This document shows positions 41,183-57,672 of a stretch of 64,000 bases of DNA, one piece after another. Source of the stretch: Methylobacterium sp. CB376 (GTDB lineage Bacteria; Pseudomonadota; Alphaproteobacteria; Rhizobiales; Beijerinckiaceae); contig NZ_CP121648.1 in the NCBI RefSeq assembly GCF_029714205.1, positions 62,001-126,000 of the forward strand. Reading direction: 5' to 3'. A program made the translations under genes and the position numbers. Position 1 is the stretch's first letter. Each line of letters opens with the position of its first letter. Below the pieces are notes generated by a model. The model saw only the letters and a program-made list of their open reading frames with translations. It searched no databases and was not told the origin of the DNA.

Positions 41183-43362
41183 GACTGGGCCAGGAGCGCC
41201 GCGTAGGCGCCCTCCCGGGCGAGGAGTTCCTCGTGCCGGCCGCGCTCGGCGATGCGCCCGCGCTCCAGCACGATGATCTCGTCGCAGTCGCGGATCGTGC
41301 TGAGCCGGTGCGCGATGATGATGCAGGTGCAGCCGCGCCGCCTCAGGTTGTCGTCGATGATCTTCTCCGTCACCGGATCGAGGGCGGCCGTGGCCTCGTC
41401 GAGGACGAGGACGGAGGGGTTCTGCACCAGGGCGCGGGCGATCTCGATGCGCTGGCGCTGGCCGCCGCTGAAATTCGCGCCGCCCTCCAGCACGTGGCCG
41501 TCGTAATTGCCGGGCCGCGTCGCGACCTCGCCGTGGACCGCCGCGTCCTTGAGGGCCAGCGAGAGGTCGGGCTCGGGCACGGTCGGGTCCCAGAGGGTGA
41601 GGTTGTCCCGCACGCTGCCCTCGAACAGGACGATGTCCTGGTCGACGTAGGCGACCGACTGGGCGAAGACCTCCGGCGGGATGTCGGCGAGGCGCCGCCC
41701 GTCGAGGCGCACCTCCCCCGACCAGGGCCGGTTGAGCCCGCAGATCAGCCGCCCGAGGGTCGACTTGCCGCTCCCCGAGAGGCCGACCAGGGCGACGCGG
41801 CTGCCCGGCTCGATGGTGATCGAGACATCCTGCAGCAGGGGCGGCTCCAGGATCGCGTAGCCGAAGGACACGCCGACCAGTTCGACCCGCCCGACGAGCC
41901 GCGGCGGCGGCGGCGGCAGGGCGGGATCCGGCTCCGGCCGCTCGACCGGGTAGTTGTAGACGTCGTCGAGGCGCTCCAGCCCGCCCTTGATGATCTGGAT
42001 GCTGCCGATCTGGCCGACCAGGGCCGTGATCGGCTCGGAGAAGCTCGCCATCAGCGACTGGAAGGCGATGAGGCCGCCGAGGGTCAGCGAACCCTCGGTG
42101 ACCCGCAGGCCGCCGATGCCCAGGATCGCCGCCGTGGTGAGGCCGGAGAGCAGGGTCGGCACCGTGTCGAGCCAGGCCGAGGTGGCGCCGAGCTCCTGCT
42201 CGGCGTTGAGGGCGCGGGCCTGGATGCCGGCCCAGTGCCCGAAGGCCTCGTCCTCCAGCCCGCTCGCCTTGAGGGTCTCGATGGTGCGCACCGCCCCGAT
42301 CGTGCTGCCCAGGAGCTTGCCGCGCTCCATGGCGAGGCTGCGGCTGAGATCCTCGCGGCGCCGCCCGATCAGGTGGAGGGCGAGCACGTTGAGCAGGGAC
42401 AGCGCCACGCCGATCACCGCCAGGAGCAGGTCGTAGACCGCCATCGCGGCGGCGAAGAAGACCAGGGAGGTCAGGGAGAGCGCGTTGCTGACGAGGCCGC
42501 CCGAGAGCAGGCGCGCGATCTGCTCGTTGGTGGAGACCCGGTTGGCGATGTCGCCGGCGTGGCGCTGGGCGAAGAACTCCATCGGCAGCGCGAGGACGTG
42601 CCAGAGGAAGCGGCTGGTCATCACCACGGCGAGCTTCGTCTGCAGCCGCGTCATCAGCGACAGCTGCAGGGCGGTGACGCCGGCCCGGAACAGGGCGGTG
42701 AGGCCCATCCCGATCAGCAGCGGCGTCAGCCAGCCCGGGGTGTTCTGGATCAGGATCTCGTCGATGAAGATCTTGGTGAAGCCCGGGATCAGGATGCCCG
42801 GGACGATCAGCGCGAGGCTCACCGCGACGAGCAGGCCGACCGCCGCGCGGGAGGCGCCGAGTTCGCGCAGGAGCAGCCGGAAGCCCTGCGGCTTGCGGCC
42901 GATCCGGCGGAACTCCTCGGTCGGCTCCATGGCGAGGGCGACGCCCGTGAAGGCGAGGTCGAGTTCCTGCATGGTGACGCGGCGGCGCCCCATGGCCGGG
43001 TCGTTGATGAAGGCGTGCTCCCCGCGGATCCCCTCCAGCACCACGAAGTGGTTGAAGTTCCAGTGGATGATGCACGGCATCGGCAGGTCGTGCAGGGTCG
43101 TCGGCTCCTTGCGGAAGCCCTTGGCGGCGAGCCCGAAGCCCCGCGCCGCCTTGACGATGTTGCTGGCCTTGCTGCCGTCGCGGGAGACCCCGCAGGCCAC
43201 CCGCAGCTGCTCCAGGGGCACGAAGGCGCCGTGATGGGCGAGCACCATGGCGAGCGCCGCGGCCCCGCACTCCACCGCCTCCATCTGGAGCACGGTCGGG
43301 GTGGCGGGCGGGCGGCCCCGGCCGGGCCAGGGCAGCAGGCGGCGCAGGGCGGCGGCGCTCAT
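41179..43362 (-). CDS. NHLM bacteriocin system peptidase/permease/ATPase (C39 PCAT)
   Basis: A 727-residue peptidase-containing ABC transporter that would cut the leader after the Gly-Gly motif and export the core. The C39 domain (about residues 20-135) has catalytic Cys32 in AVECGAAALAMVLAHHG, His105 in FNHFVVLEG and Asp121 in FINDPAMGRR. Residues 165-440 are six transmembrane helices. The ATPase has Walker A GLSGSGKST, signature [15 protein letters not shown], Walker B VLVLDEATAALD and H-loop IAHRLSTI. All catalytic residues are present. It is the second gene of the export operon, 6 bp downstream of the HlyD-like gene. Confidence 0.94.
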   Translation of the reverse strand: MSAAALRRLLPWPGRGRPPATPTVLQMEAVECGAAALAMVLAHHGAFVPLEQLRVACGVSRDGSKASNIVKAARGFGLAAKGFRKEPTTLHDLPMPCIIHWNFNHFVVLEGIRGEHAFINDPAMGRRRVTMQELDLAFTGVALAMEPTEEFRRIGRKPQGFRLLLRELGASRAAVGLLVAVSLALIVPGILIPGFTKIFIDEILIQNTPGWLTPLLIGMGLTALFRAGVTALQLSLMTRLQTKLAVVMTSRFLWHVLALPMEFFAQRHAGDIANRVSTNEQIARLLSGGLVSNALSLTSLVFFAAAMAVYDLLLAVIGVALSLLNVLALHLIGRRREDLSRSLAMERGKLLGSTIGAVRTIETLKASGLEDEAFGHWAGIQARALNAEQELGATSAWLDTVPTLLSGLTTAAILGIGGLRVTEGSLTLGGLIAFQSLMASFSEPITALVGQIGSIQIIKGGLERLDDVYNYPVERPEPDPALPPPPPRLVGRVELVGVSFGYAILEPPLLQDVSITIEPGSRVALVGLSGSGKSTLGRLICGLNRPWSGEVRLDGRRLADIPPEVFAQSVAYVDQDIVLFEGSVRDNLTLWDPTVPEPDLSLALKDAAVHGEVATRPGNYDGHVLEGGANFSGGQRQRIEIARALVQNPSVLVLDEATAALDPVTEKIIDDNLRRRGCTCIIIAHRLSTIRDCDEIIVLERGRIAERGRHEELLAREGAYAALLAQS

Positions 43363-43368
43363 CCGGCT

Positions 43369-44637
43369 TTACCCGGCGAGGCCGGTGAGGCGCTTGAGCA
43401 TCGGCACGACGAGGTCGAGCGGGCGGTGCTGGCGCGTGGTGATCTCGGCCCGCACCAGCGTGCCGCTGGTCAGGCGCAGGTCGGGGCCCCGCCCCACCGC
43501 CCAGGCGTAGCCGCTCGCCGTCGCGGGGTCGGGCTGCAGCCGCACCAGGGCCGCGTAGGGCGCGCCCTCCTGCGAGAAGCGGCTCACCAGGCGGTCGTTG
43601 TGCAGCACCGCCGCCATGCCCTGCGGGGTGATCGGGAAGTCGGAGATCGACACCACGCTGCCGACCAGGGTGCCGTATTCCTCGCGCTTGACGGTGCTGG
43701 GCTCGAGCCGGGTCTCCATGCCGGGCTTCACGGTCTTGCCCTTGTCGGCCGGGATGTAGACCACCGCCTCCAGCGCCTTGCCCTCGCTCTCGACCGCGAT
43801 CACCGGCATGCCGACCGTGAGGACGGAGCCCGGCGAGACCTTGACCTCCAGGACCCGCCCGTCGATCGGGCTGAGCACCTGGGTGTTGCGGCCGAGCTCC
43901 CCGGCGAGCTGCTCCATCTGGCGGCGGGTGTCGTTGAGGCGGAACTGCGAGTCCTGCAATTCGCGCTCGCGCTGGGTCTCCAGATCGGTCTTCTGGGTGC
44001 GCAGCTTCAGCACCTCGTTCTGCGCGTCCTCGCGCCGCTGGCGCGCCTCCGTCAGCTCGCGGCGCCGGTCCTCGACCACCCGGCGCGTGGTGATGCCCTT
44101 GCCGAGCAGCGTCTCCAGGTTCCTCACCTCGGTCGACAGATACTCGATGCGCTGATCGGTGGCGTGGACGATCTGGTCGAAGGCCTCCTCCAACTTGGCG
44201 AAGTTGCGGGCCTTGGCGGCGAGCTCGTCCTTGACCTTGGCCCGCAGGGTGGCGTGCTCGCGCTCGCGCTCGCGATGGACCTCGACGGCGGCGCGGTGGC
44301 GCTCCTCGATGTCGGTCTGGGCGATGCGGGCCACCGGCTGGCCCTGGACGACCCGGTCGCCGGCCGCCACCTCGATCGCCGCGAGCCGGCCCGAGGCGGC
44401 CGAGACCGCGTCGACCACGCGCCCGCCGACGCTCACCAGGATGCCCTCGCCGGCCGCGCGCGTCGGCACGCGCCCGACCACGCTCCAGGTCAGGGCCGAG
44501 ACGAGCAGCAGCGCCACCGTGCCGGCGAGGATCCAGTCGGCGGGCTTGGTGATGCGGACGAGGTGGTCGAGCTGCTCGGGCGAGGCGGCGCGCTCGAGCG
44601 CGATCGGCCGGAATGCCCGCTGCGGGGATGAACTCAT
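43369..44637 (-). CDS. NHLM bacteriocin system secretion protein (HlyD-like adaptor)
   Basis: A 422-residue membrane-fusion protein, first gene of the export operon. A short cytoplasmic tail (QLDHLVRITKPADW) and one transmembrane helix (ILAGTVALLLVSALTWSVVG) lead into a lipoyl half (GRLAAIEVAAGDRVVQGQPV). A long charged coiled coil (about residues 115-260) is followed by the second lipoyl half (TQVLSPIDGRVLEVKVSPGS) and the beta-barrel. The opening (PEQLDHLVRITKP) is typical of NHLM-associated adaptors. The ATG at 44635-44637 lies in the last unit of a 14-bp tandem repeat. It diverges from the biosynthetic genes. Confidence 0.93.
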   Translation of the reverse strand: MSSSPQRAFRPIALERAASPEQLDHLVRITKPADWILAGTVALLLVSALTWSVVGRVPTRAAGEGILVSVGGRVVDAVSAASGRLAAIEVAAGDRVVQGQPVARIAQTDIEERHRAAVEVHREREREHATLRAKVKDELAAKARNFAKLEEAFDQIVHATDQRIEYLSTEVRNLETLLGKGITTRRVVEDRRRELTEARQRREDAQNEVLKLRTQKTDLETQRERELQDSQFRLNDTRRQMEQLAGELGRNTQVLSPIDGRVLEVKVSPGSVLTVGMPVIAVESEGKALEAVVYIPADKGKTVKPGMETRLEPSTVKREEYGTLVGSVVSISDFPITPQGMAAVLHNDRLVSRFSQEGAPYAALVRLQPDPATASGYAWAVGRGPDLRLTSGTLVRAEITTRQHRPLDLVVPMLKRLTGLAG

Positions 44638-44884: not shown

Positions 44885-45412
44885 ATGCGGAGTGCACTTG
44901 GCGCAGATCGGCGGCGGGCCCGACCCGCCCGGCCGCCGCGGCCCGCCGCGCTGGCGGCCCTCCTGCTCCTCGCGCTCCCGCCCGGCGCGGTCGCGCGGGT
45001 GCTCTCCGACGGGGACCTCGCCAGCGTCGCGCGGATCAAGCCCCTGTTCACCGCCGTGCTCAGCGACGTCGCGCGCTCGGCCCAGAGCCCGGACCTGTCC
45101 GCCCCGGACGGGGATTGCCTGCGCTCGACCCTGCGCTCGCTCATGCAGATCTCCGACGAGCTGAAGGGATACGAATCGCTCATCACCATCGAGGGTGAGA
45201 TCACGGATTTCGGCGACGACGAATCCCTGCGCAGCGTGCTGCGCTTCGCCGTCGAGAACGCGCTCAAGATCCTCGACACCGAGCGCCGCCGGCTCGGAGA
45301 GTTGTCCGATACCTGCTCGCGTTCCCCGCTCGCGGCCGGGAAGACACGCCAAGCGCTCCAGTTCATCGACAGCACGCAGGCGATCCTGCGCGCGGTACAG
45401 CCCAGGCTGTGA
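44885..45412 (+). CDS. Exported hypothetical protein at the head of the RiPP biosynthetic operon
   Basis: A 175-residue protein with an N-terminal signal sequence (basic start, then AALAALLLLALPPGAVA). The mature 135 residues look all-helical (SVARIKPLFTAVLSDVARSA, LRSTLRSLMQISDELKGYES), with three Cys including DGDCLRSTL and DTCSRS. No family recognised. It lies in the divergent region between the exporter and the maturation enzymes, 101 bp upstream of the first radical SAM gene, so it may be a periplasmic accessory or immunity-type protein. That is positional inference. Confidence 0.7.
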   Translation: MRSALGADRRRARPARPPRPAALAALLLLALPPGAVARVLSDGDLASVARIKPLFTAVLSDVARSAQSPDLSAPDGDCLRSTLRSLMQISDELKGYESLITIEGEITDFGDDESLRSVLRFAVENALKILDTERRRLGELSDTCSRSPLAAGKTRQALQFIDSTQAILRAVQPRL

Positions 45413-47539: not shown

Positions 47540-47905
47540 ATGAACCGCGAGAAGGGACATCCGGTCCAGGCGACCGTGACCTGCATCCGGGGCACCTGCA
47601 ATGCCGGGCACCGGGTCGGCGACGTGCTGCCCGTCAGCGCCCGCAACACGGCCGGGATGTGCGGCTACCTCTACCACGCCGCCCATCCGGCGATCCTGAT
47701 GCTGCAATTCGGCGGCGCCGTGCCCTGGGGGCCGGCCGACCGGGTGGTGCTGAACTGTCCCGATCCCGTCAACCTCCTCACGGTGGAGCTGCGCCGCCTG
47801 CCGGAGGGCGTCCCGGGCGAGGCGCCCGCGGCGGAGGCGGCGCCCGCCTCGGCCGAGGCGGCGCCGGTCCGGCTCGGCCGGGTCGTGTGCCGGGTCGAGG
47901 GCTGA
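47540..47905 (+). CDS. TIGR04076-like small protein
   Basis: A 121-residue protein. Residues 8-90 match the TIGR04076 pattern: VTCIRGTCNAGHRVGDVLPV, GMCGYLYHAAHPAILMLQFG, VVLNCPDPVNLLTVELRRL, with Cys at the positions usual for the family. The C-terminal 30 residues are Ala/Pro/Glu-rich. The family has no known function but occurs widely in anaerobe and radical-SAM contexts. It lies 70 bp after the first radical SAM gene, and its TGA overlaps the next ATG (TGATG at 47903-47907), so it is coupled to the prenyltransferase gene. Confidence 0.82.
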   Translation: MNREKGHPVQATVTCIRGTCNAGHRVGDVLPVSARNTAGMCGYLYHAAHPAILMLQFGGAVPWGPADRVVLNCPDPVNLLTVELRRLPEGVPGEAPAAEAAPASAEAAPVRLGRVVCRVEG

Positions 47906-49026
47906 TGGGCGCCGCCACCCGCTTCGAGGCCGCCGCCCGGACCCTGCGGGCGGTGGCGGCGGCGGCGGGGTTCCCGCCGGCCGCGCGCGAGGAGGCCGTG
48001 GCCTGCGCCCGGCTCCTCGCGGCCTCCTGGGCCGACGAGCCCCTCGCCGCGCCGCCGCCCTGGTCGGGGCTCGGGGCCGACGCGAGCGGCTTCGACGCCT
48101 CGCTGGTCCTCGACGGGACCCGGCGCGAGGTGCGCGTCACGGTCGAGGCGCAGGGGCGCCCGGCGACGCCCGCGCGCTATCTCGCGGCGGCGCGCGCCCT
48201 CTCGGAGCACTTGGCGGAACGCCACGGGGCGGACCTGTCGCGGCTGGCTTCGCTGCTGCCGCTCTTCGCGCGGCCCGACCCGCGGGCGGCGGGGGTGCTC
48301 TGGCACGGCGCCGTCCTGGCGCCGGGCCGGGCGCCCTGGTTCAAGGTCTACCTGCACCTGATGGCCCCGGGCCGGGCGCGCGCCCGCGCGACCGCGGAGG
48401 CCGCCCTCGACCGCCTCGGCCTCGCCCCGGCCTGGCCCGGCCTCGCCGCGCGGCTCGCGCCCGAGGACGAGCCGCTCTTCCTCAGCCTCGACCTCGTGCC
48501 CGGCCCGGAGGCGCGGGTGAAGCTCTACGTCCGGCACGGCTGGGCGGGGCCGGAGACGCTCGCCGCACCCCACGATCCCGCCTTCTCCGGCGAGGTCCTG
48601 GCCTTCGTGCGGGGGCTCGCCGGGGACGGCCCGATCCGGCGCGGCGCGCTCACCGCCTTCCACCTGCGCCCGGGCCGCGCCGAGCCCTCGCACGTGACCA
48701 CGCATCTGCGCCTCTACCCGCACTGCGCCCGATCCGACGCGGTGCTCGCCGCGCGGCTGACGCGGGCGCTCGACCGCCTCGGCCTGCCCGCCGCCCCCTA
48801 CCGCGCCGCCCTGGCGGCGCTCGCCCCCGGCGGGCTCGACGGGGAGGAGGGCCTGCACGGCTGGGCCTCCCTGCAGCGGCACGGGGCGCGGCCGGCGGTC
48901 AGCGTCTACGTCTCGCCCCGCCTCTACCTCGCGCGCTTCGGCCCGGTCGCCCTCGATCCGGAGCGGCTCTGGCCCTCGCCCGTGCCGGCGGCGGCCCTGC
49001 GGGAGGATGCATGCGCGTCGCCCTGA
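47905..49026 (+). CDS. DMATS-type (ABBA-fold) aromatic/tryptophan prenyltransferase
   Basis: A 373-residue protein that aligns by eye over its whole length with bacterial tryptophan dimethylallyltransferases such as PriB. Shared blocks are REVRVTVEAQG (Arg77, diphosphate-binding), WFKVYLHL (Lys147, Tyr149), LFLSLDL then ARVKLYVRH (Lys206, Tyr208), TTHLRLY, and PAVSVYVSPRLY (Tyr335). These K-x-Y and Y residues form the diphosphate cage in the family. The conserved indole-contacting Glu (usually EFSL) is Asp64 here (FDASL). It likely attaches an isoprenoid to an aromatic residue. The precursor 2.2 kb downstream ends in its only Trp, the obvious acceptor. It overlaps the next radical SAM gene by 16 bp. 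Confidence 0.88.
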   Translation: MGAATRFEAAARTLRAVAAAAGFPPAAREEAVACARLLAASWADEPLAAPPPWSGLGADASGFDASLVLDGTRREVRVTVEAQGRPATPARYLAAARALSEHLAERHGADLSRLASLLPLFARPDPRAAGVLWHGAVLAPGRAPWFKVYLHLMAPGRARARATAEAALDRLGLAPAWPGLAARLAPEDEPLFLSLDLVPGPEARVKLYVRHGWAGPETLAAPHDPAFSGEVLAFVRGLAGDGPIRRGALTAFHLRPGRAEPSHVTTHLRLYPHCARSDAVLAARLTRALDRLGLPAAPYRAALAALAPGGLDGEEGLHGWASLQRHGARPAVSVYVSPRLYLARFGPVALDPERLWPSPVPAAALREDACASP

Positions 49027-51161
49027 TCTTCCCGCCCGCGACCGACCCGCGCGCGCCGCATCTCGGCCTGCCCTGCCTCGCGGCGGTGCTGCGGGAAGCC
49101 GGGATCCGGACCGACCTGATCGACGCCGATATCGGGGGCCTCACCGCGCTCCTGGGCGCCGAGAGCGTGGCCGCGTCCCTCGCCCGCCTCCGCCGCGGGG
49201 GGGCGCGGGACGGCGGCGCCGCGCGCCTCCTCGCCCGCGGCGAGGCCCTGGTCGAGGCGGTGCCGCGCGCCCTCGCGACCCTGCGCGACCCGGAGCGCTT
49301 CTACGACGTCCACGCCTTCCACGCCGCCCGCGAGACGATCCTCGACGGGCTCGACCTCGTCTCGGCGGCGGCGCCGCGCCCCGTCCGCTACGACCTCTGC
49401 CCGATCCGCTACGAGGTCGAGGGCGTCGACGAGCAGAGTCTCGGCGACCTGATCGCGGTCACGGCCGACCCGGACGCCAACCTGTTCGAGGCGCATTGGC
49501 GCAGCGACCTCTTCCCGGCCCTCGACGCGGATCGGCCCGACCTCGTCGGGATCTCGATCGTCAACCGCCAGCAGATCCTGCCCGGGCTCACCCTCGCCCG
49601 GCGCCTGCGCGCCCGGGGCCTGTTCGTGGTGCTGGGCGGCACCGTCTTCACCAAGTTCGTGAGCGAACTCCTCGCCCGGCCGGACTTCTTCGCCCATTTC
49701 GCCGACGGCGTGATCGCCTACGAGGGCGAGACCGCGATCCTCGAACTCGCCGCCCAGCTCGACGGGGCGCGCGACTTCGCCAAGGTCCCGAACTTCCTGC
49801 ACGTGGCGGAGGGGCGGGTGCGGATGGGGCCGACCCACGTCGAGGACGTGGATGCCCTGCCGACCCCGGACTTCGCCGGCCTGCCGCTCGCCGGCTACCT
49901 CGCCCCTGCGCCGATCCTGCCGATCCTCGTCGGCAAGGGTTGCTACTTCAACGCCTGCAAGTTCTGCGACATACCCTTCATCAACCACGTCTCGCGCAAG
50001 CCCTACCGGATCCGCCGGCCCGAGCGGATCGCGCAGGACATCCTCACCCTCAACGCGCGCTTCGGCTGCCGCCACTTCGAGTTCACCGACGAGGCGCTGC
50101 CGCCGCGCCTCCTCGACGGCGTCGCCGACGCCCTCGGCGCCGAGGCCGCGTCCCGCGGCCTCTCCTTCACGGGCTACGCGCGGCTGGAGCCGGGCTTCAC
50201 CGCGCCCCTGTGCGCCAAGCTCGCCCGCATGGGCTTCCGCAAGCTCTTCTTCGGCCTCGAATCCGGCGACCAGGCCACCCTCGACCACATGCGCAAGGGC
50301 ATCCGCCTGGAGAATGTCCGCCCGGTGCTCGGCCATTGCCGGGAGGCCGGGATCCACTTCCACGTCTTCTCGATCATCGGCTTCCCGGAGGAGACGGAGG
50401 CGAGCGCGCGCCGCACCCTCGGCTTCTTCGAGGACCATGCCGACCTGATCGACCATCCCGGCAACAGCTTCGACCTCCACCCGTTCGGCCTCGAATTGCG
50501 CACGCGCTACTTCGCGGAGGCCGAGGCGCTCGGGCTCGGGCTGCCGCGGGAGGCCCTCGCCAAGGATTTCGTCATCGGCCTGCGCGGCGGCTGGGACAAC
50601 AGCCGCGGCCTGTCGGAGGCGCGGGTGATCGACCTCGTGGAGCGCTACAACACGGTGCTGCGGCGCCTCTTCGCGCGCTTCCACAACGCCCCGATGCACC
50701 TCTGGCCGGGCTTCGAGGAATACGCCCTGCTCTACGCGAGCCGCTACCCGGAGGGCGCCTTCCCCTACCGCACCGCGCTGCCCGAGGCGGGCGTGCCCTT
50801 CCGGCTCACCTGGAATCCCGCCGCCGCCCTGCTGCGCCGCGACGGGCGGGTGCAGGTCGCCTCGCGCTGGAAGGCCGTCGAACTCGACGAGCGCGCCTTC
50901 CGGGCCCTCGGGGCCGAGCGGGTGCGGACCATGCAGGATCTGATCCGGGACTGCGTCGCGGCGGGCCTCGTCCGCCCGGACGACGCCCCGGAGGAGCGCC
51001 TGCGCGGCGCCCTCCACGACCTGATCGGGCACCGGCTCCTCCAGCTCGTGCTGGCGCAGCCGGGGCCGGCCGAGTCCCGCGCCGACCGGCGGCATGCGAG
51101 CGAGTTGTGCGCCATGGAACCGCAAGCGCCCGAAGCGGAACTCGCGGGCTCGACTTGGTGA
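49011..51161 (+). CDS. B12-binding radical SAM RiPP maturation enzyme A
   Basis: A 716-residue protein. The N-terminal B12-type domain begins MRVALIFPPATDPRAPHLGL and continues to about residue 230 (VVLGGTVFTKFVSELL). The radical SAM cluster ligands are Cys311, Cys316 and Cys319 in GKGCYFNACKFCDIP (CX4CX2C). Further marks are FTDEALPPRLLDGVADALG, LFFGLESGDQATLDHMRKG and FSIIGFPEETEASARRT, typical of this B12-radical SAM group. It is a close paralogue of the enzyme at 51663, and the two genes flank the precursor gene. Likely C-methylation of unactivated carbons in the peptide, inferred from the family. Confidence 0.9.
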   Translation: MRVALIFPPATDPRAPHLGLPCLAAVLREAGIRTDLIDADIGGLTALLGAESVAASLARLRRGGARDGGAARLLARGEALVEAVPRALATLRDPERFYDVHAFHAARETILDGLDLVSAAAPRPVRYDLCPIRYEVEGVDEQSLGDLIAVTADPDANLFEAHWRSDLFPALDADRPDLVGISIVNRQQILPGLTLARRLRARGLFVVLGGTVFTKFVSELLARPDFFAHFADGVIAYEGETAILELAAQLDGARDFAKVPNFLHVAEGRVRMGPTHVEDVDALPTPDFAGLPLAGYLAPAPILPILVGKGCYFNACKFCDIPFINHVSRKPYRIRRPERIAQDILTLNARFGCRHFEFTDEALPPRLLDGVADALGAEAASRGLSFTGYARLEPGFTAPLCAKLARMGFRKLFFGLESGDQATLDHMRKGIRLENVRPVLGHCREAGIHFHVFSIIGFPEETEASARRTLGFFEDHADLIDHPGNSFDLHPFGLELRTRYFAEAEALGLGLPREALAKDFVIGLRGGWDNSRGLSEARVIDLVERYNTVLRRLFARFHNAPMHLWPGFEEYALLYASRYPEGAFPYRTALPEAGVPFRLTWNPAAALLRRDGRVQVASRWKAVELDERAFRALGAERVRTMQDLIRDCVAAGLVRPDDAPEERLRGALHDLIGHRLLQLVLAQPGPAESRADRRHASELCAMEPQAPEAELAGSTW

Positions 51162-51176
51162 ACCTCGACTCCTCTG

Positions 51177-51205
51177 TTGCGTACCAGTTGAGTAAGGAGT
51201 ATTAT
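51177..51205 (+). promoter_or_regulatory. Sigma70-like promoter for the precursor gene
   Basis: TTGCGT (51177-51182), exactly 17 bases, then TATTAT (51200-51205), five of six matches to the -10 consensus. It starts just after the upstream enzyme gene stop, and transcription would begin about 30 bp before the precursor ATG. It lies in a locally AT-rich patch unlike the surrounding DNA. Confidence 0.55.
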
Positions 51206-51241
51206 TGTTTCGTAGTGCCCAGCAAAATCGGGAGAGGCCGG

Positions 51242-51592
51242 ATGTCCGAGCAAAATCAACAGCCGAACGGCTTGGTGATCACCGATGGAGGTGGTAATTA
51301 TTACTATCTTCGGCCCGAGATTCTGGCCCAGACGAAGATGCCCGACGAAGACGTGCAGAAGTTGAAGTCGGGTCTCGCGGCGTCGTCGGCCGGCAAGGAC
51401 GAGGAATTGAGCGGCGCGGCGCTGGAAGCGGTGGCGGGCGGCGCCGGCATCGGCGGCGGCATTCAGCTGCCGGGCGTGGTGCAGATCCCGAGCTTCAATA
51501 TCGGCTCGCTCACGGCATCCTTGACGCACAGCAAGCCGGGTCTTCCCGATCTCGGCAAGGTGATGTCCTCGACCGTGATGTGCCCCTGGTGA
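51242..51592 (+). CDS. RiPP precursor peptide with C-terminal Cys-Pro-Trp
   Basis: A 116-residue peptide. Residues 1-67 look like a leader: NGLVITDGGGNYYYLRPEIL, a helical MPDEDVQKLKSGL, then ELSGAALEAVAGG, the Gly-Gly cleavage motif of Nif11/NHLP-type leaders. The predicted core (68-116) is Gly-rich, then has nine Ser/Thr (84, 89, 91, 93, 95, 97, 109, 110, 111), one Cys (114) and one Trp (116, the last residue). The Ser/Thr suit the LanB dehydratase, and the lone Trp suits the prenyltransferase. The ATG at 51242 has gggagagg upstream and its own promoter. No close family is recognised. Confidence 0.85.
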   Translation: MSEQNQQPNGLVITDGGGNYYYLRPEILAQTKMPDEDVQKLKSGLAASSAGKDEELSGAALEAVAGGAGIGGGIQLPGVVQIPSFNIGSLTASLTHSKPGLPDLGKVMSSTVMCPW

Positions 51593-51598
51593 GCCGGT

Positions 51599-51628
51599 TC
51601 CGGCGCGGGACGGCCGCCCCGCGCCGGA
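51599..51628 (+). terminator. Hairpin just after the precursor gene (partial terminator or attenuator)
   Basis: tccggcgcggg (51599-51609) and cccgcgccgga (51618-51628) form an 11-bp perfect stem with an 8-base loop, starting 7 bp after the precursor stop. No T tract follows, so read-through into the downstream enzymes is likely. Such hairpins are common after RiPP precursors and raise precursor over enzyme dosage. Confidence 0.6.
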
Positions 51629-51662
51629 TCGCCCGTGACTCCCCGCGTCCTTATCGGTCCCC

Positions 51663-53780
51663 ATGGCAAGGGTCGCTCTCATCTATCCCCCCGGGGGTGA
51701 CCCGCGCGCCCCGCGCCTGCCGCTGCCCGCGCTGGCGGCGGCCCTGCGCCCGGCCGGGGTGGCGGTCGACCTGTTCGACCTCGACCTCGAGGGCGTGCTG
51801 GCCCTGCTGCGGCCCGAGCGCCTGCGGCGCGCCGCCGCCGCGCTCGCCGCCCGCCCGCGCCCCGAGCCCGATTCCGCCCTCGGCCGCCTCGCCGCCCTGG
51901 CGCCGGACCTGCCCGACACGATCGAGGACGCGCTCGCGACGATCCGCGACCCGGTGCGCTTCGCCGATCCCTGGCGGCTCAACGCGGCCCGCGAGCGGAT
52001 CTACGACGCCCTCGACCTCGTCTCCGCGGCCGCGCCCCGGCGCCTGCGCTACCAGACCGAGGTGCTGCGCTACGAGGTCGAGGGGGTCGATCCGAGCCGC
52101 CTGTCCGACCTCCTCGCGGTGACCGCCGACCCGGCCGCCAACCTGTTCGAGGAGCATTGGAGCGAGGAGGTCTTCCCCCGGCTGGAGGCGGGCGGGGCCT
52201 ACGACCTCGTCGGCATCTCCCTGACCCTGCGCTGGCAGCTCATCCCCGGCCTGTCGCTGGCGCGGCGGCTGAGGGCCCGCGGGCACCGGGTGGTGCTCGG
52301 CGGCACCGCCATCGCCAAGGTCGGCGAGGCCCTCGCCGGCTGCCCGGCCTTCTTCGCGGCCTTCGCGGAGGCCGTCGTGACCCGCGAGGGCGAGGCGGCG
52401 ATGCTGGCCCTCCTCGACGCGCTCGCCGGCGACGGGGATCTCGGGCGCGTGCCGAACCTGCTCTACCGCGCGGGCGACAGGGTCGTCGCCACGCCGACGC
52501 GGGTCGAGGACTACGCCGCCAACCCGACGCCCGACTTCGACGGCCTGCCCCTCGACCGCTACCTCAGCCCGCACCTCGTCCTGCCGGTGATGCTGGGCAA
52601 GGGCTGCTACCACGACGAGTGCAGCTTCTGCGACATACCCTTCATCAACCGGATCTCGCCCAAGCGCTACCGGCTGCGGCGGCCCGAGACGGTGGCGGAG
52701 GACATCGACCACCTGGCCGAGCGGCACGGCTGCCGCCACTTCCTCCTCGCCGACGAGGCCCTGCCCCCCCGCGTGCTCGGGCGCGTCGCCGAGGCGCTGG
52801 AGGCGCGCGGGCGCACCGACTGCGTCTTCTCGGGCTACGCGCGGCTGGAGCCGGGCTTCACCCGCGACCTCTGCGACCGGCTCGCCCGGGTCGGGATGCG
52901 GCGGCTCTATTTCGGCCTCGAATCCGCCGACCAGGACACCCTCGACCGGATGCGCAAGGGCATCCGGGTCGAGCACGCGGCGCCGGTCCTGCGCCATTGC
53001 CGCGAGGCCGGGATCCGCTTCCACGTCTTCTCGATAGTCGGCTTCCCGGGCGAGACCGAGGCCAGCGCCCGGCGCACCCTCGCCTTCTTCGAGGAGAATG
53101 CCGAGCTGTTCGACGATCCGGGCTGCACCCTCGACGTGCACGAGCTGGAGATCCTGACCGACACCCCCTACTTCGCCGACCCGGACGCCTACGGCATCCG
53201 CTTCCTCGTCCCCACGGAGGGCCGCGACTTCCTGTTCGGCGTCGGCACCGCCTGGGAGAGCACGCCCGGGCTCACCCGGCCGCAGATCGCCGCCCTGCTC
53301 GACGAGGCCGGAGCGCGGCTGGGGCCCCTCCTCGCCCGCTGCCACGCCTGGCCCCCGGTGCTGTGGCCGGCCCCGGAGGAATGGGCGCTCTGCGCGGCGG
53401 GCGCGTGGTTCGGCCGCGACCTGCCCGACCGGCTCGACCTGCCCGGCCCCGCCGACCCGCGCCGCCTGCGCCTCGCCTGGAACCCGGCCGCCTGGGTGCG
53501 CCGGGAGGGCGGCCTCTGCCGGATCGCCTCGCGCCGCGGCGCCCTCGTCCTCGACGCGGAGTGGTTCCGCCGCCTCGGCGAGACGCCGGGCTTTCGCACC
53601 AGCGCCGAGATCCTGCGCGATCTCGCCGGGCCCGGCGCCTCGCCCGACGACCTGCGCCGCACCCGCGACACCCTCACCGCCCTGCTGCGCCAGCGCCTGC
53701 TCGAACTCCATCCGGAGCCCGAGCCGGCCACCGAAGCCCAGATTCCCCGGCCGCGGCTCCCGGAGGCCGCCTGTGCCTGA
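51663..53780 (+). CDS. B12-binding radical SAM RiPP maturation enzyme B
   Basis: A 705-residue paralogue of the enzyme at 49011; the two share layout and many blocks (starts MARVALIYPPGGDPRAPRLP). The radical SAM ligands are Cys315, Cys320 and Cys323 in GKGCYHDECSFCDIP. Matching blocks are LADEALPPRVLGRVAEALE, LYFGLESADQDTLDRMRKG and FSIVGFPGETEASARRTLA. An extended C-terminal part (RLRLAWNPAAWVRREGGLCR) is also seen in enzyme A. The pair probably arose by duplication and may act on different positions of the precursor. It overlaps the next gene by 8 bp. Confidence 0.9.
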   Translation: MARVALIYPPGGDPRAPRLPLPALAAALRPAGVAVDLFDLDLEGVLALLRPERLRRAAAALAARPRPEPDSALGRLAALAPDLPDTIEDALATIRDPVRFADPWRLNAARERIYDALDLVSAAAPRRLRYQTEVLRYEVEGVDPSRLSDLLAVTADPAANLFEEHWSEEVFPRLEAGGAYDLVGISLTLRWQLIPGLSLARRLRARGHRVVLGGTAIAKVGEALAGCPAFFAAFAEAVVTREGEAAMLALLDALAGDGDLGRVPNLLYRAGDRVVATPTRVEDYAANPTPDFDGLPLDRYLSPHLVLPVMLGKGCYHDECSFCDIPFINRISPKRYRLRRPETVAEDIDHLAERHGCRHFLLADEALPPRVLGRVAEALEARGRTDCVFSGYARLEPGFTRDLCDRLARVGMRRLYFGLESADQDTLDRMRKGIRVEHAAPVLRHCREAGIRFHVFSIVGFPGETEASARRTLAFFEENAELFDDPGCTLDVHELEILTDTPYFADPDAYGIRFLVPTEGRDFLFGVGTAWESTPGLTRPQIAALLDEAGARLGPLLARCHAWPPVLWPAPEEWALCAAGAWFGRDLPDRLDLPGPADPRRLRLAWNPAAWVRREGGLCRIASRRGALVLDAEWFRRLGETPGFRTSAEILRDLAGPGASPDDLRRTRDTLTALLRQRLLELHPEPEPATEAQIPRPRLPEAACA

Positions 53781-54174
53781 CGCCCTCGCCCCCGATCGCC
53801 CCGGCGCCGCCGGCTGGTTCGGCCCCCGCCCGGTCGAGCCGCTCACCGCCTGCGGGGAGACCGTCGCCGTCGTGCGCAAGAAGGCCCTGCTGCGGCTCCT
53901 CGCCCGGCGGGAGGCCGCGCGGCTCGGGCTCCGCGCCACGCCCGAGCAGGTCCGGGAGACGGAGAGCCAGTTCCGGCTGTGCTTCGGGCTCGCCGCGGCG
54001 GAGGATCTCGCGGGCTGGCTCGCCGAGAGCGGCCTCGATCCGGCCGGCTTCGCCGAGGCGATGCGGGACTTCACCCTGGTGCGCCTGCTGGAGGAGAGCC
54101 TCGCCCCCGAGATCGACCGCCTCGCCGCCGCGCAGGTCGCGGTCGGCACCGCCCGCCTGCGTCCGGGGGCCTGA
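53773..54174 (+). CDS. SurA-N/PpiC-related small maturation protein
   Basis: A 133-residue protein with a helical pattern like the N-terminal domain of SurA/PpiC chaperones: LLARREAARLGLRATPEQVR, then FGLAAAEDLAGWLAESGLDP and FAEAMRDFTLVRLLEESLAP. No peptidyl-prolyl isomerase domain follows. Families of PpiC-related 'peptide maturation' proteins are known beside bacteriocin operons; it may bind the leader or core. The TGA of enzyme B lies inside its start region (8-bp overlap), and the LanB C-domain gene starts 4 bp after its stop. Function is inferred from the fold pattern and context. Confidence 0.65.
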   Translation: MPDALAPDRPGAAGWFGPRPVEPLTACGETVAVVRKKALLRLLARREAARLGLRATPEQVRETESQFRLCFGLAAAEDLAGWLAESGLDPAGFAEAMRDFTLVRLLEESLAPEIDRLAAAQVAVGTARLRPGA

Positions 54175-54178
54175 CCCG

Positions 54179-55087
54179 ATGGCGCGCGCGGGCCGCTCCT
54201 GGCTGCAGGTGAATGTCGGCCTGTCCCGCGAGCGCGGCTCGGCGCTGCCGGCCGCCCGCGCCCTCCTCGGGGAGATCGGCGACGCCCTGCCCGGGTGGCG
54301 CAGGACGCGCCTCCTCTCGGCCTTCCTGTTCCAGCGCAAGCCGCCGGACCTGCGCCTGCGCTTCCGGGGCGACCGCGACCGGCTGCTCGCGGAGCTGCGC
54401 CCGATCCTCGCGCGGCACGTGGCCGAGGGCAGGGTCACGCGGCACTTCGTCAGCGTCTACGAGCCGGAGGCGCGGCTGTTCGGCGGGGCGCAGGCCATGG
54501 AGGCCGTGCACGGGTTCTGGGAGGCCGACAGCCGGCTCTGGATCGCCGTCGACCGGCTCATCGCCGAGAAGGCCCTGACCATCCCCTACCCGTCGCTGCT
54601 GACCGCGATCCTCAACGAGACGGCGTGGCGCAGCCTCGGCGACGGCGCCGAGGTCTGGGACACGTGGTGCAACCTCCTCGTCCTGCTGCGGGCGCCGGCC
54701 GAGGGCGCGCCCGCCGGGGACGCGCCGCCGCTCCCGGCCTCCCCGCCGATCCATCTCGACGGGCTCCGGACCAGCGCCGGCCCGGCGGAGGCGGCGATCC
54801 TCGACGCCTACGGAGAGGCGGCCGGGCAGCTCGCGGCCGGGCTGCTGCGGAGCTGGGAGCGCGGGCGCCTCGCCTGCGGCTTGCGGGCCCTCCTGGCGAC
54901 GGCCGCCCTCTTCACCCTCAACCGGCACGGCTTCGGCCAGGCCCGCGCGGTGCCGCTGGTGCGCGCCGTGGCGGCCTCCTGGGACGGCCGCAGCCTCCTG
55001 CGCGGCGCCCTGCCCGAGCCGCATCCGGGCGCCTTCCACCCGGCCCGGCACCCGGATCGCGGGGCGATCCGGCAGGGTGCCGGATGA
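54179..55087 (+). CDS. LanB C-domain / thiopeptide-type bacteriocin biosynthesis protein (SpaB_C-like)
   Basis: A 302-residue protein of the elimination half of LanB dehydratases. Matches are SWLQVNVGLSRERGSALPAA, FLFQRKPPDLRLRFRGDRDR, TRHFVSVYEPEARLFGGAQA and MEAVHGFWEADSRLWI. In split LanB systems it removes glutamate from glutamylated Ser/Thr to give dehydroamino acids, or catalyses a cycloaddition in thiopeptides. It comes before the N-domain gene, with which it overlaps (ATGA at 55084-55087). The order is reversed compared with fused LanB. Confidence 0.87.
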   Translation: MARAGRSWLQVNVGLSRERGSALPAARALLGEIGDALPGWRRTRLLSAFLFQRKPPDLRLRFRGDRDRLLAELRPILARHVAEGRVTRHFVSVYEPEARLFGGAQAMEAVHGFWEADSRLWIAVDRLIAEKALTIPYPSLLTAILNETAWRSLGDGAEVWDTWCNLLVLLRAPAEGAPAGDAPPLPASPPIHLDGLRTSAGPAEAAILDAYGEAAGQLAAGLLRSWERGRLACGLRALLATAALFTLNRHGFGQARAVPLVRAVAASWDGRSLLRGALPEPHPGAFHPARHPDRGAIRQGAG

Positions 55088-57672
55088 GCGCGGTGCGGGG
55101 GCTCGGCCCGGCGATCCTGCGCGTCGCGGGCTGGCCGATCGAGACCCTGGCGCCGCTGCGCGCGGCGGCCCTGACGAACCGGGTCGATGCCTGGATCGCG
55201 CGGGACGAGGCGCTCCTGCGCGAGGGGGCGGCCCTGGCCGGCGAGGTGCGGGCGGCGTTGCGGGGCGCGGAGGATCCGGCGCGGCGCGGGGCGCTCCTCG
55301 ACCTGGCGCGGGCCCTGCGGCGCTCGGCGCGCCCCCTGCCGGCCGCGGCGGTCGGGCGGCTCTGGGGCGATCCCTCGCTCGGCGAGGCCGTTCGGGGAGC
55401 CGCCGCGTCCCGCCTCGCCCACGCGGCCGAGCGGGCCGGCATCGACGCGGCGCACGCGGCGGAACTCGCCCGCGCGGGGGCGGCCCTCGAGGCCGTCGCC
55501 CGCGAGGAGCGCTTTCGGCGCGCCCTCTGCCTCGCCAGTCCCTCGGTCTTCCGCCGCCTGACGGATCCGCCGGGCGACGCGCGCGGCCGGCGCCGGCTCG
55601 CCGCGAGCCTGCACCGCTACCTGATGCGGGCGGTCGGCCGCGCGACGCCGAACGGCCTCTGGGCCGGCATCGTCCTCGAGGACGCGGGCGGGGGAGAGGA
55701 CGTGGGCGGGGGCGAGGACGCGCGATGGTGCGCGCGGGGCCCGCTCGCGGTCGCGCCCGCCCCGGCCGTCACCCGCGTCGCCCCGGTGCTGCACCTGTTC
55801 GCGCGGATCCTGGAGGCGCGCGGCCGCGCCCGGCCCTGGATCGACGCGACCGCCTGGCGCCTCAACCCGACGCTGCGGCGCGCGGGGGCCGCGTGGCTGT
55901 TCGGCACGGTCGCGGAGGGGATCTGGGTCACCCGGCAGGTCGCCGACCACGCGCCGCTCGGCCACCTCCGCGCCGCCCTGGCGCCCGGGGAGGAGGCGGC
56001 GCCCGACGCGATCGCCGACGCGCTGCGCCGCCGCGATCCGGCGCTCCCGGACGAGACCGCGCGGGCCTGGGTCGAGGCCTGGATCGGCGCCGGGATCCTG
56101 TCCCCGTCGACCGCCCTGCCGGGCTTCTACGCGGATCCCTGGCAGGCCCTCGACGGGATCGTCGCCGCCCTGCCCGCGGGCGAGGCCGAGAGCTGGCGCG
56201 CGGTCCGCGCCGCCCTCGCGCGGATCGCGGCGGAGATCGAGGCGGGGATCGAGACCCTCTCGGCCGAGGCCCTGCGGGCGCGGCTCGACGCGGCCCGGGC
56301 GCCGGTGGCCGCCCTGCTGGCCGGCTACGGCCTGGCGCTGCCGGACGGGGCGGACGTGCTCGCGCTCGACCGCACGGCGCCGTTCCGCTTCGCCCTGTCG
56401 CGGGACCTCGCCGCCGCGATCGAGGCGCGGATCCGCGCGGCCTGGGCCTTCGACCGCTTCGGCCTCGGCGCCGTCGAGGCGGAGATCGAGACGGAGCGCC
56501 TCTTCGGCCCGATCGCCCCGGGCTGCACGGTTCCCCTCGGGGATTTCCTCGCGCCGGAGGCGGAGGCGGAGGCGGGCCTCGGGCGCCGCGCCCGCACCTG
56601 GGAGGAGCGCGCGGCGGCCCCGCCCGGCAGCGACCTCGCCCGGCGCGCCCGCGAGGCCTTCGGGCGCTGGGAGCGCGTCCTCGCGCCCGATCCCGCGGCG
56701 CGCCGCCTCGCCCTGCCGGAGCCGGAGCCGGAGCCTGAGCCGGGCCCGGGCGGGGAGCCCCTTCCCGCGGGCTCGGCCCTCCTCCTCGTCGATGCGGACG
56801 GGCGCCTGCGGCTCGGCGGGATCACGCCGGAGCCCGCCTTCTTTCACGGGCGCTTCGCCGCCCTCCTGGGCGCGGCGTTGGACGGGTCGGACGCCTTCCT
56901 CGACTGGCTGCGGGGCGCCCTGCGCGGAATCGAGGCGCGCCACCCCGTGCGCTTCTGCGACATCGCCATCCGCAACCACCGGGCGCCGAACGTCACGGCC
57001 CGGCCCGCCAGCGCGCGGCGGGCGCTCGACCCGCTCGCGGGCGGCGGCGAGGCCCTGCGCGGGCTCGGGATCGGCCGCGACGCGCGCGGCCGGCCGGCCC
57101 TGCACGCCGCCGGCCTGCCCGAGCGGCTCGTCCCGGCCGCCCGCACCGCCGCCTCCCTCGCCGGGCTCGACCGCATCGCCTGGCTCCTGTCCTCGGTGTC
57201 CCTCTGCCTCGGCCGCCCATCCCTGATGGCGCCGATCCCGCCGCTCGCCCGCGAGGTGGCGGAGTGGCGCCACCTGCCGCGGCTCCTCCTCGGCGAGACC
57301 GTCCTCGGCCCGGAGCGCTGGACGCCGCGGGAGGCCGTGGGCGCCGGCCTCGCGGCCGCCCGGGGGGCCGAGCGCTTCGTGATCTGGCGCCGCTTCGCGC
57401 GCGAGGCCGGGCTCCCCGCCCTCCTCTACGCCTTCGCGGGACGCGGCGAGACCGAGGTGCTGCTGGCGGCTGACAGCCCGCTCGCGATCGACCTCCTCGG
57501 CCAGGACCTCGCGGCCCACGGCCCGGCGCTTCGCCTCCAGGAACTGCTCCCGGATCCGAGCGGCTTCGTGGTCCGGGACGAGGCCGGGCGCCGCTACCTC
57601 GCAGAACTCGCCGTGGCCTGGGCGGGGGACGACGCATTCTGGGCCGGGCTCGCCCCCGCGGCGGAGGCGTGA
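55084..57672 (+). CDS. LanB N-domain lantibiotic dehydratase (glutamylation)
   Basis: An 862-residue LanB-type dehydratase large domain that uses Glu-tRNA to glutamylate Ser/Thr of the precursor. Family blocks are LASPSVFRRLTDPPGDARGR (S/T-rich loop), YLMRAVGRATPNGLWAGIVL (the R-x-TP-x-GL motif), and late RPSLMAPIPPLAREVAEWRH then AREAGLPALLYAFAGRGETE. The C-terminal elimination domain is absent and is supplied by the gene at 54179. A short in-frame repeat (GGGEDVGGGEDA) lies near residue 200. Last gene of the rightward RiPP operon. Confidence 0.9.
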   Translation: MSAVRGLGPAILRVAGWPIETLAPLRAAALTNRVDAWIARDEALLREGAALAGEVRAALRGAEDPARRGALLDLARALRRSARPLPAAAVGRLWGDPSLGEAVRGAAASRLAHAAERAGIDAAHAAELARAGAALEAVAREERFRRALCLASPSVFRRLTDPPGDARGRRRLAASLHRYLMRAVGRATPNGLWAGIVLEDAGGGEDVGGGEDARWCARGPLAVAPAPAVTRVAPVLHLFARILEARGRARPWIDATAWRLNPTLRRAGAAWLFGTVAEGIWVTRQVADHAPLGHLRAALAPGEEAAPDAIADALRRRDPALPDETARAWVEAWIGAGILSPSTALPGFYADPWQALDGIVAALPAGEAESWRAVRAALARIAAEIEAGIETLSAEALRARLDAARAPVAALLAGYGLALPDGADVLALDRTAPFRFALSRDLAAAIEARIRAAWAFDRFGLGAVEAEIETERLFGPIAPGCTVPLGDFLAPEAEAEAGLGRRARTWEERAAAPPGSDLARRAREAFGRWERVLAPDPAARRLALPEPEPEPEPGPGGEPLPAGSALLLVDADGRLRLGGITPEPAFFHGRFAALLGAALDGSDAFLDWLRGALRGIEARHPVRFCDIAIRNHRAPNVTARPASARRALDPLAGGGEALRGLGIGRDARGRPALHAAGLPERLVPAARTAASLAGLDRIAWLLSSVSLCLGRPSLMAPIPPLAREVAEWRHLPRLLLGETVLGPERWTPREAVGAGLAAARGAERFVIWRRFAREAGLPALLYAFAGRGETEVLLAADSPLAIDLLGQDLAAHGPALRLQELLPDPSGFVVRDEAGRRYLAELAVAWAGDDAFWAGLAPAAEA

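What the first reader, a model, noticed from the sequence alone, without database searches (positions are those of the whole stretch)
47905..51592. Tryptophan-type prenyltransferase paired with a precursor whose only Trp is its last residue
Seen: the 373-residue protein carries the DMATS diphosphate-cage K-x-Y pairs (Lys147/Tyr149, Lys206/Tyr208) and Arg77; the 116-residue precursor has exactly one Trp, at position 116, within CPW. Known: bacterial and fungal DMATS enzymes prenylate free Trp or small indoles, and in RiPPs prenylation is known from cyanobactin (PagF/KgpF-type) and ComX-type (ComQ) enzymes, which are unrelated to DMATS. Inference: this would be a DMATS enzyme acting on a ribosomal peptide C-terminus. 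The usual indole-contacting Glu is Asp64, which fits a changed acceptor.
Basis: partly seen in the sequence, partly recalled or inferred. Interest (0 to 1): 0.95.

Follow-up and report, generated by a model that had tools for sequence, protein, structure and literature searches.

The report
Peptide-tail tryptophan prenylated by DMATS enzyme
A Methylobacterium gene cluster holds a gene for an enzyme of the ergot-alkaloid type (DMATS family) beside a small peptide whose last four residues, ending in tryptophan, are the same in 104 of the 106 family members found; the enzyme likely attaches an isoprenoid to that final tryptophan, which would be an unusual way of lipidating a ribosome-made peptide.

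The parts
47905..49026 (+). DMATS-family prenyltransferase, 373 aa
51242..51592 (+). RiPP precursor, 116 aa, tail STVMCPW
   Evidence: 104 of 106 family members end MCPW
51572..51589 (+). conserved tail T-V-M-C-P-W (inferred core; Trp116 inferred prenylation site)
   Evidence: the only exact match of the tail pattern in this genome
45514..47469 (+). rSAM1: radical SAM enzyme of the RiPP C-methyltransferase model, CX7CX2C
   Evidence: TIGR03975 660.8 bits (cut-off 281.85); Pfam B12-binding 24.9, under its cut-off of 32.1; motif
47540..47905 (+). TIGR04076-family protein, 121 aa; its stop codon shares one base with the DMATS start codon
   Evidence: 52.4 bits (cut-off 33); junction
49011..51161 (+). 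rSAM2: B12-binding/radical SAM enzyme, CX4CX2C; overlaps the end of the DMATS gene by 16 bases
   Evidence: Pfam Radical_SAM 52 bits, B12-binding 33.3 (cut-off 32.1)
51663..53780 (+). rSAM3: radical SAM enzyme, about 50% identical to rSAM2, CX4CX2C
   Evidence: Pfam Radical_SAM 76.3 bits, B12-binding 17.9 (under cut-off)
53773..54174 (+). 133-aa conserved protein, distantly similar to the C-terminal part of a TfuA protein
   Evidence: 51-52% identical in two other clusters; 5e-8 to the TfuA end in the Rhodoplanes contig
54179..55087 (+). elimination half of a split lanthipeptide dehydratase
   Evidence: Lant_dehydr_C 49.5 bits (cut-off 24.4); TIGR03891 55.2 (cut-off 48.45)
55084..57672 (+). 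glutamylation half of a split lanthipeptide dehydratase
   Evidence: Lant_dehydr_N 66.1 bits (cut-off 28); no NCBIfam match
43369..44637 (-). NHLP-system HlyD-type secretion protein
   Evidence: TIGR03794 300.6 bits (cut-off 156.2)
41179..43362 (-). NHLP-system C39 peptidase/ABC exporter
   Evidence: TIGR03796 1076.1 bits (cut-off 853.3); Peptidase_C39
38237..41104 (-). NHLP-system second ABC exporter subunit (the start was chosen by hand and is not a start codon; the true start may differ)
   Evidence: TIGR03797 927.3 bits (cut-off 709.4)
44885..45412 (+). 175-aa conserved protein with a signal-like N-terminus by eye (start inferred)
   Evidence: 67% and 60% identical in the Rhodoplanes and Bradyrhizobium clusters; no Pfam match

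Best explanation
The 47905-49026 gene encodes a DMATS-family protein (fold predicted) that likely prenylates the indole of Trp116, the last residue of the precursor encoded two genes downstream, as one of several predicted modifications of a short conserved tail, T-[VI]-M-C-P-W. Inferred order: the leader brings the enzymes to the peptide; the split dehydratase would dehydrate Thr111 (and perhaps Ser110); one or more of the three radical SAM enzymes would C-methylate or otherwise modify the tail; the DMATS would transfer dimethylallyl or geranyl from primary metabolism to Trp116; the NHLP-type exporter would cut after VAGG and export the product. Shown by sequence: family membership, cluster content, tail conservation. 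Predicted: fold. Inferred: acceptor, donor, order and product.
For: DMATS membership: Pfam, PDB sequences and predicted fold. Arg77, Lys147, Tyr149, Arg204, Lys206, Tyr208 and Tyr335 are kept in 23 of 23 rows (their role as diphosphate cage is recalled). Gene overlaps put the DMATS inside the operon. The tail is constant while the spacer drifts. Trp is the only aromatic residue invariant after the leader in the 38-row alignment; of the 47 spacers (of 104) that my GG pattern delimited, 0 hold Trp, 7 Tyr, 25 Phe and 37 His. Co-occurrence: 2 of 111 genus genomes have the DMATS and the same 2 have the precursor; 1 of 397 order genomes has each, the window's own. Of 391 genomes in the family of the Rhodoplanes genome 2 have the precursor, and both carry a DMATS in the cluster; of 203 of that family searched with Trp_DMAT, 1 matched, the Rhodoplanes genome (the answer does not show whether the Bradyrhizobium one was among the 203). 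The Bradyrhizobium cluster has a different DMATS at a different place but the same tail. Precedent: DMATS-type enzymes prenylate the Trp of daptomycin (PMC13290415, passages), and PalQ prenylates a conserved C-terminal Trp of a RiPP.
Against: No activity data. Met, Cys and Pro of the tail are as invariant as Trp (104 of 104 each) and Thr nearly so (103), so conservation alone does not single out the DMATS substrate. Only three lineages and one same-species copy were read as DNA; the contexts of the other relatives, including the Nif11-leader ones, were not seen, so the share of precursors that go with a DMATS is unknown. The clade has changed positions that are conserved in comparators (Glu to Asp64, Tyr to His267, Pro to Arg269), and NCBIfam's DMATS model is not reached (70.5 bits, cut-off 163.85). 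rSAM1 and TIGR04076 are missing from the Bradyrhizobium cluster, so not all parts are needed. No model of the enzyme-peptide complex was made.
Confidence: 0.68

Rival explanations
1. The DMATS prenylates free tryptophan or another small indole, and the invariant Trp of the precursor is kept for another reason, such as recognition or modification by a radical SAM enzyme or the dehydratase.
For: The solved bacterial relatives listed are described as Trp or indole enzymes; the whole tail, not only Trp, is invariant.
Against: No gene identified in the cluster points to small-indole chemistry, though several have no known function; DMATS matches are rare in the genomes searched yet sit in these clusters; two different DMATS types accompany the same tail.
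Confidence: 0.17
2. The DMATS acts on the peptide but not on Trp116: for example it S-prenylates Cys114 or modifies a leader Tyr.
For: Cys114 is invariant in 104 of 104 tails; the clade has unusual positions Asp64, His267 and Arg269; fold relatives include the histidine enzyme FunA and DMATS1 solved with Tyr.
Against: The nearest solved relatives are described as Trp or indole enzymes; the Bradyrhizobium enzyme keeps the canonical residues with the same tail.
Confidence: 0.08
3. The tail is a scaffold from which a small molecule is made, for example a prenylated Pro-Trp unit released from the C-terminus, so that the peptide itself is not the product.
For: The tail is short, terminal and constant whatever the leader and spacer; some distant precursors, such as P0102 and P0108, have no GG site and keep the tail.
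Against: No gene recognised here would release such a unit; an NHLP-type peptide exporter is present.
Confidence: 0.07

Closest known systems
PalQ/PalX of Paenibacillus alvei (PMC10853753, passages read)
   Same: RiPP precursor with a conserved C-terminal Trp that is prenylated
   Different: PalQ belongs to the isoprene synthase superfamily and its cluster has three genes; here the enzyme is of the DMATS family and the cluster adds dehydratase and radical SAM genes
MppC (lanthipeptide prenyltransferase, PMC12715784, parts 1 and 2 of 3 read)
   Same: alpha-beta-beta-alpha soluble enzyme acting on a Trp in a lanthipeptide core; Nif11-like leader, as in some relatives here
   Different: MppC is placed in one family with the cyanobactin enzymes; its heptapeptide core is cyclised by a class II lanthionine synthetase; here there is a split class I type dehydratase and no LanC-like gene
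Bacterial DMATS enzymes CymD, MpnD, TleC, PriB, IptA
   Same: family, fold and most of the conserved positions tested
   Different: they are described as Trp or indole enzymes; this clade has Asp64, His267 and Arg269 and the window's member sits in a RiPP operon
Cyanobactin prenyltransferases (PagF, KgpF, LimF)
   Same: prenylate ribosomal peptides; same barrel fold by PMC13290415 (passages)
   Different: low sequence similarity to ABBA aromatic enzymes and leader-independent, by the papers read; no cyanobactin-type family was hit here
Trp-prenylated lasso peptides (reported in PMC13352647, passages read)
   Same: RiPP with prenylated Trp
   Different: different scaffold; the enzyme family could not be read here, so it may or may not be DMATS

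Membership tests
DMATS / Trp_DMAT aromatic prenyltransferases | Pfam Trp_DMAT over gathering score | tested here: met
   34.8 bits, cut-off 25; Bradyrhizobium cluster enzyme 62.5
DMATS / Trp_DMAT aromatic prenyltransferases | NCBIfam TIGR03429 over its curated cut-off | tested here: not met
   70.5 bits, cut-off 163.85; Bradyrhizobium enzyme 101.8
DMATS / Trp_DMAT aromatic prenyltransferases | barrel fold of solved DMATS enzymes | tested here: met
DMATS / Trp_DMAT aromatic prenyltransferases | cage residues and the indole-contacting Glu (roles recalled) | tested here: inconclusive
   Arg77, Lys147, Tyr149, Arg204, Lys206, Tyr208, Tyr335 in 23 of 23; Asp64, His267, Arg269 in 23 of 23 where comparators have Glu (6 of 6), Tyr (5 of 6), Pro (6 of 6)
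DMATS / Trp_DMAT aromatic prenyltransferases | prenyl transfer to an indole | not testable with these tools
   needs an assay
Cyanobactin (F-family) prenyltransferases | sequence match to a cyanobactin-type family | tested here: inconclusive
   only Trp_DMAT and TIGR03429 matched at E up to 0.1; that the libraries hold a cyanobactin-type model was not checked
trans-IDS-like prenyltransferases (ComQ, PalQ) | all-helical isoprenoid synthase fold (recalled) | tested here: not met
   the model has ten strands of three or more residues in alternation with helices and matches the DMATS barrel; no other Pfam match
Class I lanthipeptides | LanB dehydratase, both halves | tested here: met
   Lant_dehydr_N 66.1 bits; Lant_dehydr_C 49.5; TIGR03891 over cut-off
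Class I lanthipeptides | LanC-type cyclase | tested here: not met
   no LANC_like match in the whole genome held (the control search rang in 1 of 14 genomes)
RiPP precursors of the NHLP or Nif11 leader type | leader matches the family model | tested here: not met
   window precursor: no Pfam or NCBIfam match; relatives P0117, P0122, P0129 pass Pfam Nif11, but P0117 and P0122 stay under NCBIfam TIGR03798's cut-off (28.3 and 29.4, cut-off 32.3)
NHLP-type export system | TIGR03794, TIGR03796, TIGR03797 over cut-offs | tested here: met
RiPP radical SAM C-methyltransferases (TIGR03975) | model cut-off | tested here: met
   rSAM1 660.8 over 281.85; rSAM2 (95.3) and rSAM3 (107) do not reach it

The most novel reading that the evidence does not exclude
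A widespread, undescribed RiPP class built on one near-invariant hexapeptide core, T-[VI]-M-C-P-W, carried by unrelated leaders (one of them Nif11-type), dehydrated and C-methylated, and capped by DMATS enzymes that left small-molecule metabolism, perhaps twice, to prenylate the last Trp of a ribosomal peptide.
Probability: 0.5. Interest if true: 0.87.

Novelty: new variant of a known kind. Interest (0 to 1): 0.76.

Why it matters
DMATS enzymes are classic small-indole catalysts. If one has become a peptide-modifying enzyme that reads a six-residue tail, it gives a new route to site-selective C-terminal Trp lipidation, a natural experiment on how an indole pocket opens to a peptide (Asp64, His267 and Arg269 are invariant in this clade), and a genome-mining hook (terminal T[VI]MCPW) for a RiPP family whose genes combine dehydration, radical SAM modification and prenylation.

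Tried and rejected
Considered and set aside: cyanobactin-type or ComQ-type enzyme; plain class I lanthipeptide (no LanC-like match in the genome); a single LanB of the PEARL type (recalled) because both dehydratase halves are present.

Searches that gave nothing or little: precursor relatives in viral contigs (6 stretches matched a pattern, none confirmed) and the tail pattern there (0); plasmids with the precursor and two distant relatives (none). The DMATS in plasmids gave one Calothrix match at 29%; the annotation around it names no RiPP gene, but most of its features read hypothetical protein. rSAM2 in plasmids gave 47 records, all under 60% identity; in the one that I opened (Rhizobium phaseoli) the annotation names no RiPP operon. 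PHROGs gave nothing. The precursor model is mostly low confidence (pLDDT 58.5). Tail pattern in 378 phylum genomes: only the window's own. PagF-type structures are not among the 50 rows shown, which says nothing for or against.

Tree: the 23-row clade is solid (100/100), but the place of the Bradyrhizobium enzyme is unresolved, long branches are flagged, and the letter make-up of the window's enzyme differs from the alignment's, so 'recruited twice' is not shown.

Limits: one search scored only the 7995 candidates sharing most words, so distant DMATS were missed. Comparators are 4 of the 9 PDB sequences plus two loci. Contig-length coincidence (103036 and 6321 bases) suggests two more DMATS-precursor pairs but is weak. 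My GG pattern delimited 47 of 104 spacers and missed others that do have a GG.

Papers: statements on what is not in print rest in the open library only. Not read: PMC11197979 (lasso-peptide Trp modifications), PMC11484575 (ribosomal peptides with polycyclic isoprenoids) and the review 10.1039/d5np00075k, none of them held, and the collinodin paper 10.1021/acscatal.5c01005, seen only as a reference and not looked up.

Full report
Observation. The TIGR04076 stop codon shares its last base with the first base of the DMATS start codon, and the DMATS gene overlaps rSAM2 by 16 bases, so the DMATS lies within the operon.

The precursor. A sequence search gave 38 proteins, its own entry included, and a profile search 106. 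Of the 106, 104 end MCPW; Thr is at -6 in 103 of 104 and Val or Ile at -5 in 103 of 104. The two others have an altered and an unrelated end. Leaders range from the window's type to Nif11 domains (P0117, P0122 and P0129 over the Pfam cut-off, P0130 just under; P0117 and P0122 are under NCBIfam's Nif11 cut-off), and some distant ones such as P0102 and P0108 have no GG site. The tail is thus the constant part. The mean share of the commonest symbol is 0.45 in the spacer and 0.96 in the tail on 38 sequences. The paper search for STVMCPW, TVMCPW, STIMCPW and MCPW found 33 papers; papers holding more of the terms are ranked first and the 10 listed hold MCPW alone and are unrelated by title, so no paper of that library prints the longer strings.

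The cluster. rSAM1 is TIGR03975 over cut-off. All three radical SAM proteins have B12-binding matches, over the Pfam cut-off of 32.1 only in rSAM2 (33.3; rSAM1 24.9, rSAM3 17.9). rSAM2 and rSAM3 share a CX4CX2C motif that is kept in two other clusters. The dehydratase is split into Lant_dehydr_N and Lant_dehydr_C. No LanC-like protein is found in the whole genome, so lanthionine rings are not assumed. The exporter genes on the other strand are the NHLP set, all three over their cut-offs.

Other clusters. A Rhodoplanes MAG has all 13 genes compared, with the DMATS 57% identical, and a TfuA gene downstream. A Bradyrhizobium contig (its length, 66765, equals that of the contig of P0038, named B. 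forestalis by its source) has the exporter genes, the 175-aa protein, rSAM2, a DMATS of 36% identity, the precursor, rSAM3, the 133-aa protein and both dehydratase halves. It lacks rSAM1 and TIGR04076 in the 30 kb read; elsewhere in that genome only a 38% partial match to rSAM1 was found. Its DMATS (Trp_DMAT 62.5 bits) lies after rSAM2 instead of before it and keeps Glu, Tyr and Pro. In the tree the 23-row clade is supported 100/100, while the place of the Bradyrhizobium enzyme is unresolved.

Rarity and co-occurrence. DMATS: 2 of 111 genus genomes, 1 of 397 of the order, 1 of 203 in the family of the Rhodoplanes genome by Trp_DMAT. Precursor: the same 2 of 111, the same 1 of 397, 2 of 391 in the family of the Rhodoplanes genome. 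Tail pattern: 1 of 378 phylum genomes, the window's own. Where I could read DNA around a precursor a DMATS was present; that is three lineages plus one same-species copy, and the remaining relatives were seen as proteins only.

Mechanism. I infer that the tail is the substrate of the tailoring enzymes and that the DMATS prenylates Trp116. The case rests on enzyme family, operon position, an invariant terminal indole, rare joint occurrence, and the same tail beside two different DMATS types. Donor and regiochemistry are open. The dehydratase would act on Thr111, and the radical SAM enzymes may methylate the tail; neither is shown.

Known ground. C-terminal Trp prenylation of a RiPP is known for PalQ (passages) and lanthipeptide Trp prenylation for MppC (parts 1 and 2 of 3). 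The review passages read give three groups of prenyltransferases, eukaryotic, cyanobactin and trans-IDS-like, and mention ABBA-type indole enzymes as tools on daptomycin. I found no report of a DMATS-family enzyme serving a RiPP in the searches listed under Tried and rejected, but four papers that bear on it were not read, and one could already describe such an enzyme. Hence 'new variant of a known kind'.

Noticed in passing
49011-51161 and 51663-53780: rSAM2 and rSAM3 carry a CX4CX2C motif (CYFNACKFC, CYHDECSFC) that is kept in the Rhodoplanes and Bradyrhizobium clusters; rSAM1 has CX7CX2C. That CX3CX2C is the usual radical SAM motif is recalled.
   Followed up: partly
53773-54174; L016:866-1114: The 133-aa protein resembles the C-terminal part (weakly SurA-like, under cut-off) of a TfuA protein encoded downstream in the Rhodoplanes contig, which hints at a shared partner module.
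   Followed up: partly
51162-51241: The gap before the precursor has 51% GC against 73-76% in rSAM2 and rSAM3, possibly a promoter region of its own; the sigma-70 scan of 51100-51800 found no site.
   Followed up: partly
L012:13135-14415: The Bradyrhizobium cluster holds a DUF455 gene on the opposite strand between its DMATS and its precursor.
   Followed up: no
L011:7407-8495: A Calothrix plasmid has a DMATS-like gene (29% identical), annotated as hypothetical, near a dimethylaniline monooxygenase and an SDR gene.
   Followed up: no
44885-45412: A 175-aa protein with a signal-like N-terminus is conserved at 60-67% in two other clusters and has no Pfam match.
   Followed up: partly
60715-63989: Cellulose-type genes (GH8 and BcsB) lie on the other strand beyond the cluster.
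   Followed up: no
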